Shown: piece by piece, positions 49,413 to 53,271 of the stretch
Layout of the letters: the number at the start of each line of letters is the position of its first letter
Numbering within the stretch: position 1 is the first letter of the stretch
NCBI GenBank assembly: GCA_902631395.1
Contig: CACOYM010000013.1
Location: 1-64,000 of the forward strand
Length of the DNA stretch: 64,000 nucleotides
DNA from: Halieaceae bacterium
GTDB taxonomy: Bacteria > Pseudomonadota > Gammaproteobacteria > Pseudomonadales > Halieaceae
Direction of reading: 5' to 3'
The notes under the pieces: generated by a model
What the model was told of the DNA's origin: nothing
Databases searched by the model: none
What the model saw: the letters and a program-made list of their open reading frames with translations, nothing else
Made by a program: the position numbers and the translations under genes

Positions 49413-50651
49413 ATGGCCGGTGAGGCACCCTTGCGCATCGCTCTGCTGGGTTACCGCTCAGCGCCATTTTCAGGTGGTCAGGGCGTCTACCTTCGGTACC
49501 TTAGTCAGGCGCTTGCCACGCTGGGACATCAGGTTACAGTGATCTCGGGCCCGCCTTACCCGCAGCTTGTTGACGGCGTCACACTGGTTGAGTTGCCCGG
49601 TCTCGACTTATATGCCCGAGAGTCCATGGCGATACCGCTCTATGAGTTGCGTGACCCGCTTGAGCGTCGCGAATGGATCAGTAAGCTGACGGGCGGGTTT
49701 GCAGAGCCGTGGACATTTGGCCAGCGCGTTCGCGACTGGTTGCTAGCACGTGCCAGTGACTTCGATGTGGTGCATGACAACCAGACACTGGCTGATGGCA
49801 TACTGGATATACAGCGATCGGGCATACCCGTCGTGACCACCATTCACCACCCCATTACGCGCGATCTTCGCGTCGCGCTCTCGAAGGAACCGCGCTGGTG
49901 GCGTCGCCTATTGATTCGCCGCTGGCACATGTTTCTGTCGATGCAAGCGCGTGTGGCGTCTCAGCTGAACCATATCGTGACGGTGTCGCAGTTTTCCGCT
50001 ATCGATATCGCCACTGATTTTGGTGTGATGCCGAATGCGATCAAAGTGGTCCCAAATGGGGTGGATACCTCCCTTTTCAGACCGCTTCCAGCCATTTCGC
50101 GTCGACCACGCCAGATTATCGCGACGGCCTCTGCAGACGCGCCGCTGAAAGGGCTTGCAACTTTGCTGCAAGCGTACAAGAGATTGGCAGATGCCGACTC
50201 ATCCTGCGAGCTAGTGTTGATAGCGCGACTGAGACCCGGTGGTGACACCGAGGCTCTAATAGAACGTCTCGATCTGCAGAGCCGGATCCGCTTTGTGGGT
50301 GATGTCAGCCATGAGGATATTAATCGACTGTATGCTGAGAGCGCGGTGGCAGTAGTACCGTCTCTATATGAGGGTTTTGGTTTGCCTGCGGTTGAGGCCA
50401 TGGCTGCCGGTATTCCCCTCGTGTCGACCGATGGCGGTGCTCTGAGAGAGGTTGTTGGGGAAGGAGGCCTGCAGGTTCCGGCTGGTGATAGCGACGCACT
50501 TGCCGACGCGATTGATCGCTTATTGTGTGATCCCGAACTGGCGGAGACGGTCGCGCAACGGGGGCTCGATCGTGCGCGGCAGCGGTTCTGTTGGTCGGTA
50601 TGTGCTGCTCATATGGTGCGCCTTTATCGCGAGACCAGTGTCATATGCTAA
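49413..50651 (+). CDS. Glycosyltransferase family 4 protein
   Basis: GT-B-fold glycosyltransferase, about 412 aa, probably cytoplasmic. N-terminal half: RIALLGYRSAPFSGGQGVYL, then HDNQTLADGILDIQ and TTIHHPITRDL. C-terminal half: VVPNGVDTSLFRP and PSLYEGFGLPAVEAMAAGIP (nucleotide-sugar EGFG..E motif). The frame opens at a TTG (49299), but the ATG at 49413 is nearer the conserved start. The next gene begins 7 bp before its stop. HDNQTL and TTIHHPIT are features I recall from a set of actinobacterial GT4 proteins that share this gene order. With the rfb genes adjacent, a rhamnosyl or similar transfer is possible but unproven. Confidence 0.85.
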   Translation: MAGEAPLRIALLGYRSAPFSGGQGVYLRYLSQALATLGHQVTVISGPPYPQLVDGVTLVELPGLDLYARESMAIPLYELRDPLERREWISKLTGGFAEPWTFGQRVRDWLLARASDFDVVHDNQTLADGILDIQRSGIPVVTTIHHPITRDLRVALSKEPRWWRRLLIRRWHMFLSMQARVASQLNHIVTVSQFSAIDIATDFGVMPNAIKVVPNGVDTSLFRPLPAISRRPRQIIATASADAPLKGLATLLQAYKRLADADSSCELVLIARLRPGGDTEALIERLDLQSRIRFVGDVSHEDINRLYAESAVAVVPSLYEGFGLPAVEAMAAGIPLVSTDGGALREVVGEGGLQVPAGDSDALADAIDRLLCDPELAETVAQRGLDRARQRFCWSVCAAHMVRLYRETSVIC

Positions 50652-51385
50652 CCGTTGATATAGAAAAATTGGTTATTGCGCCAGGCCAGACCTGCCTGGA
50701 TGTGGGCTGCGGTGAGGGGCGGCACACACTAGCGGTTTATCTCTTGGATGGTGTCTTGTCGATCGGCGTTGATGTGTCCGAGCGGGACCTTGCGACTGCT
50801 AAAGGGCGCGTTGTGGATATGCGGCCTCATGCGCCGGGAGGTGCGGTGGGCTTTGCGGCGGGTGATGCGACGGCGCTTCCCATGGCAGACGAAACAATCG
50901 ACGTGGTGATAGCCAGTGAAATTTTGGAACACATTTACAATTATCTCTCCGTGCTTGAAGAAGCGATGCGGGTGCTGAAGCCAGGAGGGCGCCTATGCGT
51001 CAGCGTGCCGAGACAGTGGCCAGAATGGGTCTGTTGGCAACTCAGTGAGGGTTACCGTAAGACTCCCGGAGGCCATATCCGCATTTTTGACTCGACCCAT
51101 TTGCGCCGCGAGATTGAGCAGCAGGGGTTCACCTATGTTGGTGGAGGCAGCGCACATGCGCTGCATGTGCCTTACTGGTGGCTGAAATGCCTCTTTTGGC
51201 AGCGGGAGCAGGAACCCCGGGTGGTTCGTGCATATCACAAACTATTGGTCTGGGATCTCATGCGTCGTCCGTGGTTGACCCGCATGTTCGATGCTGTGTT
51301 CAACCCGATTTTAGGTAAAAGCATTGTGCTTTATTTTGTCAAACCACTGCCCGACGGGGCGACGTCGCAGGGTGCTGTGACATGA
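50645..51385 (+). CDS. Class I SAM-dependent methyltransferase of the GT4 cassette
   Basis: 246-aa Rossmann methyltransferase. SAM motif I is CLDVGCGEGRH (about 17-27), acidic motif GVDVSERDL, GDATALPM, IASEILEHI and the post-motif VLKPGGRLCVSVP. The C-terminal part (HALHVPYWWLKC; LLVWDLMRRPWLTRM) is specific to this subgroup rather than to general Methyltransf_11 proteins. ATG at 50645 overlaps the GT4 stop (ATGCTAA) and its own end overlaps the next gene by 4 bp, so the three genes are coupled. The acceptor is unknown. Confidence 0.85.
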   Translation: MLTVDIEKLVIAPGQTCLDVGCGEGRHTLAVYLLDGVLSIGVDVSERDLATAKGRVVDMRPHAPGGAVGFAAGDATALPMADETIDVVIASEILEHIYNYLSVLEEAMRVLKPGGRLCVSVPRQWPEWVCWQLSEGYRKTPGGHIRIFDSTHLRREIEQQGFTYVGGGSAHALHVPYWWLKCLFWQREQEPRVVRAYHKLLVWDLMRRPWLTRMFDAVFNPILGKSIVLYFVKPLPDGATSQGAVT

Positions 51386-52422
51386 ATGCTCCGGTGTTTG
51401 CTGCCGGTGTATTCCCCACGCAATGGCTGCGGCCCACAGTCGAGTTTTTACTTAACACCCAGCGGTCATCGGGGGAAATCCCTTGGTTTGAGGGTGGTCA
51501 TACCGATCCATGGGATCACACAGAGGCCACAATGGGCCTCACTATTGCGGGCGAATGGTCCGCCGCTGAGCGTGCCTACCATTGGTTAGCTGATATGCAG
51601 CTTGAAGATGGAAGTTGGTGGGCTTGCTATCGAGACGAGCGGCCCGATGAATCAGTTGAGAGGCGTGAAACGAATTATGTGGCCTATGTTGCCACTGGCG
51701 TTTGGCATCATTTTTTGGTCACTGGCGACAGCGGTTTTTTGCGAACCATGCTCCCCGTTGTGCAGCGGGCCATTGATTTTGTTTTGCAATATCAGGGACC
51801 AGAGGGAGAGGTTGACTGGGCGGTAGATTCAACGGGTGCACCGCTGGGGGATGCGTTGGTTGCAGGCTGTAGCTCGATCTATAAGTCGCTCGAGTGCGCC
51901 ATCTTGATAGCCGAAACCCTCGGTCAACCGGCCTTGTCTTGGCGATCAGCTAGAGCTCGCTTAGGTTACGCGTTGAGACATTATCCGACCCGTTTTGACC
52001 GAACCTGGGAGAGCAAGTCCCGCTATGCAATGGACTGGTTCTACCCGGTTCTTGCTGGTTGGGTGATGGGAAAAGCTGCGCGCGAGTGGCTGTCTGCTAG
52101 GTGGGACGAATTTGTCGAGCCGGGAATTGGCTGCCGGTGTGAAAACCACCAACCCTGGGCAACGGTGGCAGAATCTTGTGAGCTTACCTTGGCGTTACTC
52201 GCCGCGGGTCAGCGAGATCAGGCAATAGACCTCTTTGGTTGGTTGGCGCAGTGGCGCGATACCGACGGCGTCTGGTGGACGGGTTATCAGTTCGTTGAGC
52301 AGGTGCTCTGGCCGCTGGAAAAGCCAACCTGGACCGCAGGTGCTGTGCTGCTCGCTGCTGATGCGCTTGCGGAGCACACCTCTGCCAGCTCGCTATTTCT
52401 AAAAACTGCGCTCCGAGATTGA
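51382..52422 (+). CDS. Alpha/alpha-barrel protein, 'prenyltransferase-like', of the GT4 cassette
   Basis: 346-aa protein rich in Trp and Tyr, with repeated helix-pair segments containing DGSWWACYR, GEIPWFEGGHTDPWDH, NYVAYVATGVWHHFL, SRYAMDWFYPVLAGW and DTDGVWWTGYQF. This pattern fits the six-hairpin or prenyltransferase/squalene-cyclase toroid fold. The DxDD motif of class II terpene cyclases is not present, so real cyclase activity is doubtful. No signal peptide or membrane helix is evident. Homologues annotated 'prenyltransferase' accompany the same GT4 and methyltransferase genes in Actinobacteria, as far as I recall. It might be a glycan-processing enzyme or a binding protein. Confidence 0.7.
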   Translation: MNAPVFAAGVFPTQWLRPTVEFLLNTQRSSGEIPWFEGGHTDPWDHTEATMGLTIAGEWSAAERAYHWLADMQLEDGSWWACYRDERPDESVERRETNYVAYVATGVWHHFLVTGDSGFLRTMLPVVQRAIDFVLQYQGPEGEVDWAVDSTGAPLGDALVAGCSSIYKSLECAILIAETLGQPALSWRSARARLGYALRHYPTRFDRTWESKSRYAMDWFYPVLAGWVMGKAAREWLSARWDEFVEPGIGCRCENHQPWATVAESCELTLALLAAGQRDQAIDLFGWLAQWRDTDGVWWTGYQFVEQVLWPLEKPTWTAGAVLLAADALAEHTSASSLFLKTALRD

Positions 52423-52456
52423 CCGTTCAGTATAGGCTCAGGGGGCGCTGGCGCAG

Positions 52457-52484
52457 TTTTGTAAGCTGCAAAACAGCTGCAAAA
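52457..52484. other. Inverted repeat between the convergent cassette genes
   Basis: TTTTG-TA-AGCTG, loop CAAAA, CAGCT-G-CAAAA: nested inverted repeats forming a two-part stem in the 177-bp spacer between the alpha/alpha-barrel gene and the convergent methyltransferase. It could end transcription from both sides, although T-tracts are short. Confidence 0.4.
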
Positions 52485-52599
52485 TCGGAATGAAATTGAC
52501 GTCTCGGATTGAAGCTGCGCCGCTATCTCGCCATTCCTTAGAGGGTATTTTCGGTGCTTACGGTTTGGTGCCCCATTACTAGGGGTGTTGGAGACGCCA

Positions 52600-53271
52600 C
52601 TATGGTGCGATGCGAGTTAGTCCTCGAAGGCTGTCTGTGGTACTAAGGGGTTCGAAAAGTCCTGATTGTGAGGCCAGTTGCCAGATCGTGAAGGGCGCCA
52701 CTCCGCCTGAGGCGGCGTCGGGGAAGACATCATGGATGGCCAAAATGCCCCCGGGTCGTATATGAGTCGCCCAGGCGCGGTAGTCGGTGAGTGCCGCTTC
52801 CAAGCTGTGGCCACCATCAATAAAAACCATGCCTAGGCCTGCCTGCCAGTGAGTTGCGAGTTGTCCACTGCTTGCAACAATCGGCACCACGGACTCCTCG
52901 AGCCCGGCTTGGGCAATGTTGTGTCTGAACTCGGTAAACGTATCCACTCGCCCTGTCGTATCGGTCAAGGCTGGATCATGATGGCTTTCCCCTGGTTGGT
53001 GTTCCTCTGAGCCCCGATGGTGATCGACGGCATACACGACGGTACTATTTAGCCGAGCCGCCTGCGCTAGCCAAAGCGTTGACCGTCCGCAGTAACTACC
53101 GATCTCGAGAATGGGGCCGATTCTCGCCGCCGTGGCCGCCCAATTGTAGAGTTGCCGACCTTCATGTTCCGGCAGAAAGCCCCTCACTGATTCATCAGGG
53201 GCCTGAGCAGGCGGGTAAGATGCGGGCTCAGACACAGCGTACGGTGTCGACTTATGCGCTGCGCTACTCAA
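52600..53271 (-). CDS. Class I SAM-dependent methyltransferase (Methyltransf_24 type)
   Basis: 223-aa methyltransferase with SAM motif ILEIGSYCGRSTLWLA (about 54-69), VDHHRGSEEHQPGESHHDP (82-100), LGMVFIDGGHSLEAALTDY and AIHDVFPDAASGG (HD acid/base pair). The DHHRGSEE..HHDP stretch is a distinctive subgroup mark that I recall from actinobacterial proteins accompanying the same GT4 cassette. The start is TTG at 53271, overlapping the tolC stop by 8 bp; a GTG at 53235 is the alternative. It therefore follows tolC in one transcript and faces the other three cassette genes. The substrate is unknown. Confidence 0.8.
   Translation of the reverse strand: MSSAAHKSTPYAVSEPASYPPAQAPDESVRGFLPEHEGRQLYNWAATAARIGPILEIGSYCGRSTLWLAQAARLNSTVVYAVDHHRGSEEHQPGESHHDPALTDTTGRVDTFTEFRHNIAQAGLEESVVPIVASSGQLATHWQAGLGMVFIDGGHSLEAALTDYRAWATHIRPGGILAIHDVFPDAASGGVAPFTIWQLASQSGLFEPLSTTDSLRGLTRIAP

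What the first reader, a model, noticed from the sequence alone, without database searches (positions are those of the whole stretch)
49413..53271. Four-gene GT4 / methyltransferase / alpha-alpha-barrel / methyltransferase cassette of unknown function
Seen: three overlapping plus-strand genes (GT4, SAM methyltransferase, Trp-rich barrel protein) face a second SAM methyltransferase, all beside a complete dTDP-rhamnose set. From memory: the same four families, with shared subgroup motifs (HDNQTL and TTIHHPIT in the GT; YWWLKC and LLVWDLMRRP in the first methyltransferase; GGHTDPWDH and SRYAMDWFYPVL in the barrel; DHHRGSEE and HHDP in the second methyltransferase), occur together in Actinobacteria. 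Inference: a conserved system making or editing a methylated glycoside or glycolipid that has crossed phyla, with no function I know of.
Basis: partly seen in the sequence, partly recalled or inferred. Interest (0 to 1): 0.8.

Follow-up and report, generated by a model that had tools for sequence, protein, structure and literature searches.

The report
Mycobacterial-type methylmannan genes in marine gammaproteobacteria
The four genes match, in family and order, the set with which some mycobacteria build and recycle an internal sugar chain of methylated mannose; here they sit in a marine bacterium and in many relatives which, where checked, lack the mycobacterial type of fatty-acid factory that the chain was thought to serve.

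Summary
[quoted passage not shown] predicted fold TM 0.93), minus-strand methyltransferase = MeT1 (48% to 6g7d), plus-strand methyltransferase = putative pMeT3. Catalytic residues are kept. Of 95 MmpH-bearing genomes among 293 sampled from the order, 89 have all four families and 95 have MeT1, including 9 where it lies 20-63 kb away. The chromosomal site (ilvE ... tolC/parE) is old; the rhamnose genes are optional neighbours. Low-GC genomes of 0.9-1.3 Mb keep the set. A FAS I marker, the enzyme MMP was linked to, was absent from 31 of 31 carriers searched. Best reading: an intracellular alpha-1,4-linked 3-O-methylmannan made by ManT and MeT3, capped by MeT1, cut by MmpH to prime new chains. 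Product, sugar donor and role are unproven, and transfer direction is unresolved. Known kind, new host group; my searches listed no report of it in Proteobacteria.

The parts
49413..50651 (+). ManT homologue: GT4 alpha-(1->4)-mannosyltransferase (predicted)
   Evidence: phmmer to 7qsg E 1.5e-102; G15, H142, K240, E313, E321 (numbering of PMC9883506) invariant in 98 of 98 homologues, window included; base-contact D293 not conserved
50645..51385 (+). MeT3: putative 3-O-methyltransferase (pMeT3 homologue), class I SAM methyltransferase
   Evidence: PF08241; position and homology to the same-place gene in Nonomuraea, 43-44%; AlphaFold pLDDT 93.2, best solved folds AtmM, SpnF, TleD and RebM at TM about 0.6
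51382..52422 (+). MmpH homologue: (alpha/alpha)6-barrel MMP endo-alpha-1,4-mannosidase (predicted)
   Evidence: phmmer to 7qsj E 2.3e-92; AlphaFold pLDDT 93.2, Foldseek TM 0.93 to 7qsj; catalytic D42, D45, E264 present
52600..53271 (-). MeT1 homologue: reducing-end 1-O-methyltransferase (predicted)
   Evidence: phmmer to 6g7d E 2.1e-52; found in 95 of 95 MmpH-bearing genomes of the order sample

Best explanation
The cassette encodes an intracellular methylmannose-polysaccharide (MMP-type) cycle. ManT adds alpha-(1->4) mannoses, probably from GDP-mannose, to a short methylmannoside; MeT3 methylates O-3 of the added mannoses; MeT1 methylates the free reducing-end O-1; MmpH cuts the mature chain internally into fragments that serve as primers for ManT and substrates for MeT1, so the polymer is replicated from its own pieces. 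Shown by others, on the mycobacterial enzymes: ManT, MmpH and MeT1 activities, and the need for MmpH (M. smegmatis mutant). Shown here: homology, residue conservation, synteny and co-occurrence. Inferred: the activities in this organism, the 3-O step by MeT3 (putative in mycobacteria too), the product, and that the polymer stays in the cytosol. My guess for its role, weaker (about 0.3): a soluble carrier for long acyl chains, tuning membrane lipid supply, perhaps in the cold, in a cell without FAS I.
For: Homology over nearly full length to 7qsg, 7qsj and 6g7d at 45-48% identity. Predicted barrel TM 0.93 to MmpH; the other listed hits have TMq 0.54-0.79. MmpH: E262, E265, W49, M215, Y219 in 109 of 109; D47 in 108 (E in one). 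Same gene order as in Nonomuraea and in the M. hassiacum locus-tag order manT-pmeT3-mmpH-meT1. Of 293 genomes of the order: MmpH 95, MeT1 97, MeT3 93, ManT 91; MeT1 in 95 of 95 MmpH carriers, all four in 89. MeT1 unlinked (another contig, or more than 10 kb away) in 21 of 95. GDP-mannose pyrophosphorylase present in the own genome. No fifth recurrent partner seen among the neighbours.
Against: No product or activity has been measured here. ManT's proposed guanine-contact Asp293 is His in the window and Asp in only 5 of 98 homologues, so the nucleotide of the donor is open. Two proposed MmpH subsite residues differ in the window (T163 to A, F102 to Y). The 3-O-methyltransferase is putative even in mycobacteria. 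ManT needs an acceptor of three or more mannoses in vitro, so the first primer is unexplained. The cytosolic location rests on inspection: a crude hydropathy check could not tell these proteins from TolC.
Confidence: 0.85

Rival explanations
1. Same enzyme logic, different sugar: the chain is built from another activated hexose or deoxyhexose (for example dTDP-rhamnose from the neighbouring rml set) and methylated.
For: rml genes adjoin the cluster in many Halieaceae (RmlA in 40 of 80 loci); ManT base-contact D293 not conserved.
Against: No rml beside the cluster in four congeners (L019, L033, L035, L036) and in 8 of 9 other-family loci of the order with long flanks (L022-L027, L029-L031; only L026 has it); most MmpH sugar-site residues conserved; a GDP-mannose synthesis enzyme is present.
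Confidence: 0.08
2. An exported or LPS-linked 3-O-methylmannan, like the alpha-1,2 3-O-methylmannose O-chain of Oligotropha named in PMC9883506.
For: Neighbours in many loci are envelope genes: tolC, waaA, an hldE-like gene, a lipid A acyltransferase, rml.
Against: No polymer export or ligation gene was recognised among the recurrent neighbours; the mycobacterial MMP is described as cytoplasmic.
Confidence: 0.06
3. A degradation cassette for methylated algal mannans, with the barrel as the catabolic enzyme.
For: Marine polysaccharide-eating host group (recalled); weak similarity of the barrel to amylase-type and GH95 models (TIGR01577 E 1.9e-10, far below cut-off; PF22124 E 0.004).
Against: Close co-occurrence with a mannosyltransferase and two methyltransferases; no transporter recurs in a large share of the loci; no obvious signal peptide by eye.
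Confidence: 0.03

Closest known systems
MMP biosynthesis cluster manT-pmeT3-mmpH-meT1 of non-tuberculous mycobacteria (M. hassiacum MHAS_04402-04405; PMC9883506)
   Same: Families (three tested directly, pMeT3 through Nonomuraea), gene order, catalytic residues, barrel fold.
   Different: Gram-negative marine host in which a FAS I marker was not found; MeT1 relocated in part of the order; ManT base contact D293 seldom kept.
GH15/GH125 (alpha/alpha)6 glycosidases (clan GH-L)
   Same: Barrel fold and catalytic-base position, as PMC9883506 describes for MmpH.
   Different: Low sequence identity (10-18% in the listed Foldseek hits after MmpH; not all of these are GH15/GH125); the barrel passes no Pfam or NCBIfam cut-off.
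MGLP (6-O-methylglucose lipopolysaccharide) system
   Same: The other polymethylated polysaccharide of mycobacteria.
   Different: Glucose chain and different enzymes; PMC9883506 gives 28-33% identity between ManT and the mycobacterial alpha-1,4-glycosyltransferases. Not searched for here.

Membership tests
MMP biosynthesis cluster | ManT homologue with catalytic residues | tested here: met
   E 1.5e-102 to 7qsg; G15, H142, K240, E313, E321 in 98 of 98
MMP biosynthesis cluster | GDP-mannose base contact (Asp293) | tested here: inconclusive
   His in window; T 56, H 23, N 7, D 5, Q 2 of 98 (five commonest residues); the contact was itself inferred from PimA in the paper
MMP biosynthesis cluster | MmpH with catalytic Asp47/Asp50 and Glu262 in an (alpha/alpha)6 barrel | tested here: met
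   D42, D45, E264 in window; TM 0.93 to 7qsj
MMP biosynthesis cluster | MeT1 1-O-methyltransferase | tested here: met
   E 2.1e-52 to 6g7d; homology only, activity and active site not tested
MMP biosynthesis cluster | pMeT3 methyltransferase in the cluster | tested here: met
   Homologue at the same place in Nonomuraea, 43-44%; not compared with the mycobacterial pMeT3 itself, whose sequence no call gave
MMP biosynthesis cluster | Four genes together in this order | tested here: met
   Window; 59 of 80 named loci
MMP biosynthesis cluster | Product: 3-O-methylmannose polymer, alpha-1,4-linked, 1-O-methyl cap | not testable with these tools
   Needs chemistry
MMP as FAS I modulator | Host has FAS I | tested here: not met
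   PF08354 (one FAS I domain, a proxy) in 0 of 1 (own) and 0 of 30 carriers; the control C. glutamicum rings
GH15 glucoamylase | Curated GH15-type model passed | tested here: not met
   TIGR01577 40 bits against cut-off 820.7; TIGR01535 14.1 against 741.9; no Pfam GH15 hit

The most novel reading that the evidence does not exclude
MMP-type methylmannan, so far treated as an actinobacterial and mainly mycobacterial speciality, is an old and core intracellular polymer of a large part of the marine Gammaproteobacteria, kept even in 0.9-1.3 Mb genomes, and its function has nothing to do with FAS I.
Probability: 0.4. Interest if true: 0.75.

Novelty: new member of a known kind. Interest (0 to 1): 0.52.

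Why it matters
MMP's physiological role is unsettled; the leading idea ties it to mycobacterial fatty-acid metabolism and FAS I. A natural set of carriers without a FAS I marker, some of them named cultured strains, separates the polymer from that background and gives simple organisms in which to test the role. It also bears on annotation: a barrel with weak amylase-like similarity in these marine genomes is more likely a methylmannan-recycling enzyme than a degrader of algal glycans.

Tried and rejected
Rejected: prenyltransferase/terpene cyclase reading of the barrel (my first paper search, held no paper; TIGR03463 only 17.9 bits against a cut-off of 851). Rejected: rhamnose set as part of the system. 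Rejected: recent mobile acquisition; GC 0.55-0.57 is like the surroundings and the site is shared across families. Looked for and not found: a fifth recurrent gene. Inconclusive: donor-recipient direction. MmpH and ManT trees (33 rows each, only two Actinobacteria, several long branches) put M. hassiacum with Nonomuraea but do not root the split. Trees for MeT1 and MeT3 were not built. Not discriminating: hydropathy check for signal peptides. The promoter and terminator scan gave 3 promoter-like sites (2.1 expected) and 6 terminator-like sites (3.7 expected), nothing to build on. The 2019 PNAS paper on MeT1 (DOI recalled) is not held, so MeT1 active-site residues were not checked against it.

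Full report
What is there. Four genes at 49413-53271: GT4 (49413-50651, +), SAM methyltransferase (50645-51385, +), barrel protein (51382-52422, +) and a convergent SAM methyltransferase (52600-53271, -). The three plus genes overlap by 7 and 4 bases. The window lies in a 2.3 Mb draft (88.8% complete). A sister genome in the same genus (G016) matches the contig of marine gammaproteobacterium HTCC2080 by length and position, and the loci nearest to the window are labelled Luminiphilus or Halieaceae. The genus name for the window itself is inferred.

Identity. Sequence search of solved structures points to three of the four: the barrel matches 7qsj, 'Methylmannose polysaccharide hydrolase (MmpH)', E 2.3e-92; the GT4 matches 7qsg, E 1.5e-102; the minus-strand methyltransferase matches 6g7d, E 2.1e-52, the only hit up to E 0.01. 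PMC9883506 (I read the outline, abstract, Introduction, all of Results, Discussion and found passages of Methods) describes the four-gene cluster manT-pmeT3-mmpH-meT1 of non-tuberculous mycobacteria; its locus tags MHAS_04402-04405 run in the order found here. That 7qsg is ManT and 6g7d is MeT1 I infer (and partly recall); the molecule names in the PDB table are generic or differ. The fourth, pMeT3, has no close solved homologue (best E 1.1e-11); the window's version matches the gene at the same place in Nonomuraea gerenzanensis at 43-44%.

Mechanism, as published for M. hassiacum and M. smegmatis: MmpH cuts MMP (11-14 alpha-1,4-linked 3-O-methylmannoses, 1-O-methyl cap) into fragments of 4-5 and 7-8 units; ManT extends these with GDP-mannose; MeT1 caps free reducing ends; pMeT3 is thought to methylate O-3; an mmpH mutant makes no MMP and grows more slowly at 15 C. 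The transfer of this scheme to the window is inference.

Residues. I extracted stop-free, near full-length homologues from the window and 120 held loci and aligned them with M. hassiacum (truncated or stop-bearing copies were dropped: 109 MmpH, 98 ManT, 100 MeT3 and 97 MeT1 kept; several loci are the same genome reached by two tools, so the counts are not independent). MmpH: Glu262, Glu265, Trp49, Met215 and Tyr219 in 109 of 109; Asp47 in 108 (Glu in one); Trp315 in 108; Thr163 in 107; Asn101 in 104; Phe102 in 75 (Tyr in 31); Asp50 in 95, Asn in 14, among them Nonomuraea. The paper found activity much reduced with either Asp47Ala or Asp50Ala; the natural D50N variants favour Asp47 as the acid, which the paper's figure legend also labels as the putative one. 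ManT: Gly15, His142, Lys240, Glu313, Gly314, Phe315 and Glu321 in 98 of 98. Against: the proposed guanine contact Asp293 is kept in only 5 of 98 and is His in the window; Thr163 and Phe102 of MmpH are Ala and Tyr in the window.

Structures. AlphaFold2 of the window barrel: pLDDT 93.2, pTM 0.93; Foldseek against PDB: 7qsj first, TM 0.93, E 1.3e-35; the next entry has E 7.4e-9. MeT3: pLDDT 93.2, class I methyltransferase, best hits AtmM, SpnF, TleD and RebM at TM about 0.6. AtmM is named a D-glucose O-methyltransferase, in line with a sugar O-methyltransferase but not proof of one.

Co-occurrence. One draw of 293 genomes of the order was searched with four profiles: MmpH 95, MeT1 97, MeT3 93, ManT 91. 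MeT1 is in 95 of 95 MmpH carriers (in G433 only as a partial match); the two extra are drafts 70% and 88% complete. MeT3 is in 92 of 95, ManT in 89 of 95, all four in 89. At least three of the six carriers without a ManT hit have MmpH or MeT3 within 300 bases of a contig start (G047, G513, G527). In 74 of 95 MeT1 starts within 10 kb of MmpH, in 9 it is 20-63 kb away on the same contig, in 12 on another contig, so linkage alone does not explain the co-occurrence. The Fisher p of 6e-76 ignores shared descent and is not used as a probability.

Synteny. Of 80 named loci, 59 show ManT+ MeT3+ MmpH+ MeT1-; 13 lack a neighbouring MeT1; 8 lack ManT, or ManT and MeT3. Seven of those 8 are cut by a contig end; the eighth, L058, has murI- and ribD-like frames and a shortened MeT3 there (names by eye). 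Eleven of the 13 genomes without a neighbouring MeT1 were searched, with G053, and 12 of 12 have it elsewhere; L092 (contig end) and L103 were not searched.

Site and age. ilvE upstream and tolC/parE downstream flank the cluster in the window's genus and, wholly or in part, in three other families (L023 and L027 with all three, L026 with tolC and parE). This, with ordinary GC, speaks for long residence. In a class-level draw MmpH occurs in 8 of the 368 other genomes, all 8 outside the order; in a phylum-level draw of 299, in the own genome, one of the order (G051) and one outside it (G169). Of those 8, six have all four genes in the fetched stretch; G646 and G654 lack MeT1 there, G654 close to a contig end. 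Three carriers are 0.9, 1.2 and 1.3 Mb genomes (96-97% complete; local GC 0.31-0.34) with ilvE beside manT. One of these also has a phosphomannomutase/phosphoglucomutase next to ilvE (L145). Size and GC fit SAR86 as described in PMC11582366 (passages seen), but the lineage was not tested.

Fatty-acid link. PMC2674218 (passages seen) states that both polymethylated polysaccharides bind acyl chains and regulate FAS-I in vitro, and also that its own MGLP mutants cast doubt on such a role in vivo. PMC9883506 speaks of fatty-acid metabolism in general and does not name FAS I. PF08354, a FAS I helical domain used here as a marker, was not found in the own genome (88.8% complete) or in 30 carriers of 94-100% completeness, while the control C. 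glutamicum rings. A link of MMP to FAS I is therefore unlikely in these hosts. PMC9883506 lists Streptomyces griseus as making an acetylated MMP; that it lacks FAS I is recalled.

Neighbours. Recurrent neighbours are housekeeping or envelope genes: tolC, rml, waaA, an hldE-like kinase, glnE, DUF1249, parE (not every recurrent cluster was named by a family search). GDP-mannose pyrophosphorylase (TIGR01479) is elsewhere in the own genome. No fifth partner that could make the first primer was seen.

Literature. Searches for 'methylmannose' with 'gammaproteobacteria' and 'polymethylated polysaccharide' with 'marine' held no paper; the listings (40 of 230 shown; 12 of 3,430 shown) show no title that reports MMP genes outside Actinobacteria. 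PMC9883506 has no occurrence of a word beginning 'proteobacteria'; PMC10100682 on Halieaceae genomes (searched for terms only) has none of 'methylmannose', 'MMP' or 'mannosidase'. The library lacks most subscription journals, the 2019 PNAS paper among them, so priority is not established.

Verdict. A known pathway in a new and broad host group. What is surprising is where it is, how strictly the four are kept together, and that the hosts show no FAS I marker.

Noticed in passing
L141 (G639), L145 (G776), L146 (G879): Genomes of 0.9-1.3 Mb with local GC 0.31-0.34 keep all four genes beside ilvE; the 0.9 Mb copy is strongly diverged (28-40% identity).
   Followed up: partly
MmpH homologues, column of M. 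hassiacum Asp50: Natural Asp-to-Asn change in 14 of 109, Nonomuraea included, while Asp47 is Asp or Glu in all: points to Asp47 as the catalytic acid.
   Followed up: partly
L024:9486-9668: A second, partial C-terminal MmpH copy between MmpH and MeT1 in G040.
   Followed up: no
L058:1-2031: MeT3 shortened and ManT missing; murI- and ribD-like frames upstream (named by eye). Assembly chimera or gene loss.
   Followed up: no
SAR86 genomes (PMC11582366): The paper reports 'glucoamylases (sga1)' in a majority of SAR86 genomes; some of these calls could be MmpH. Untested.
   Followed up: no
window:59009-61318 (-): A 769-aa multihaem-cytochrome-like protein (PF14522); a similar protein recurs in 18 of the 85 loci (match judged by eye).
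   Followed up: no
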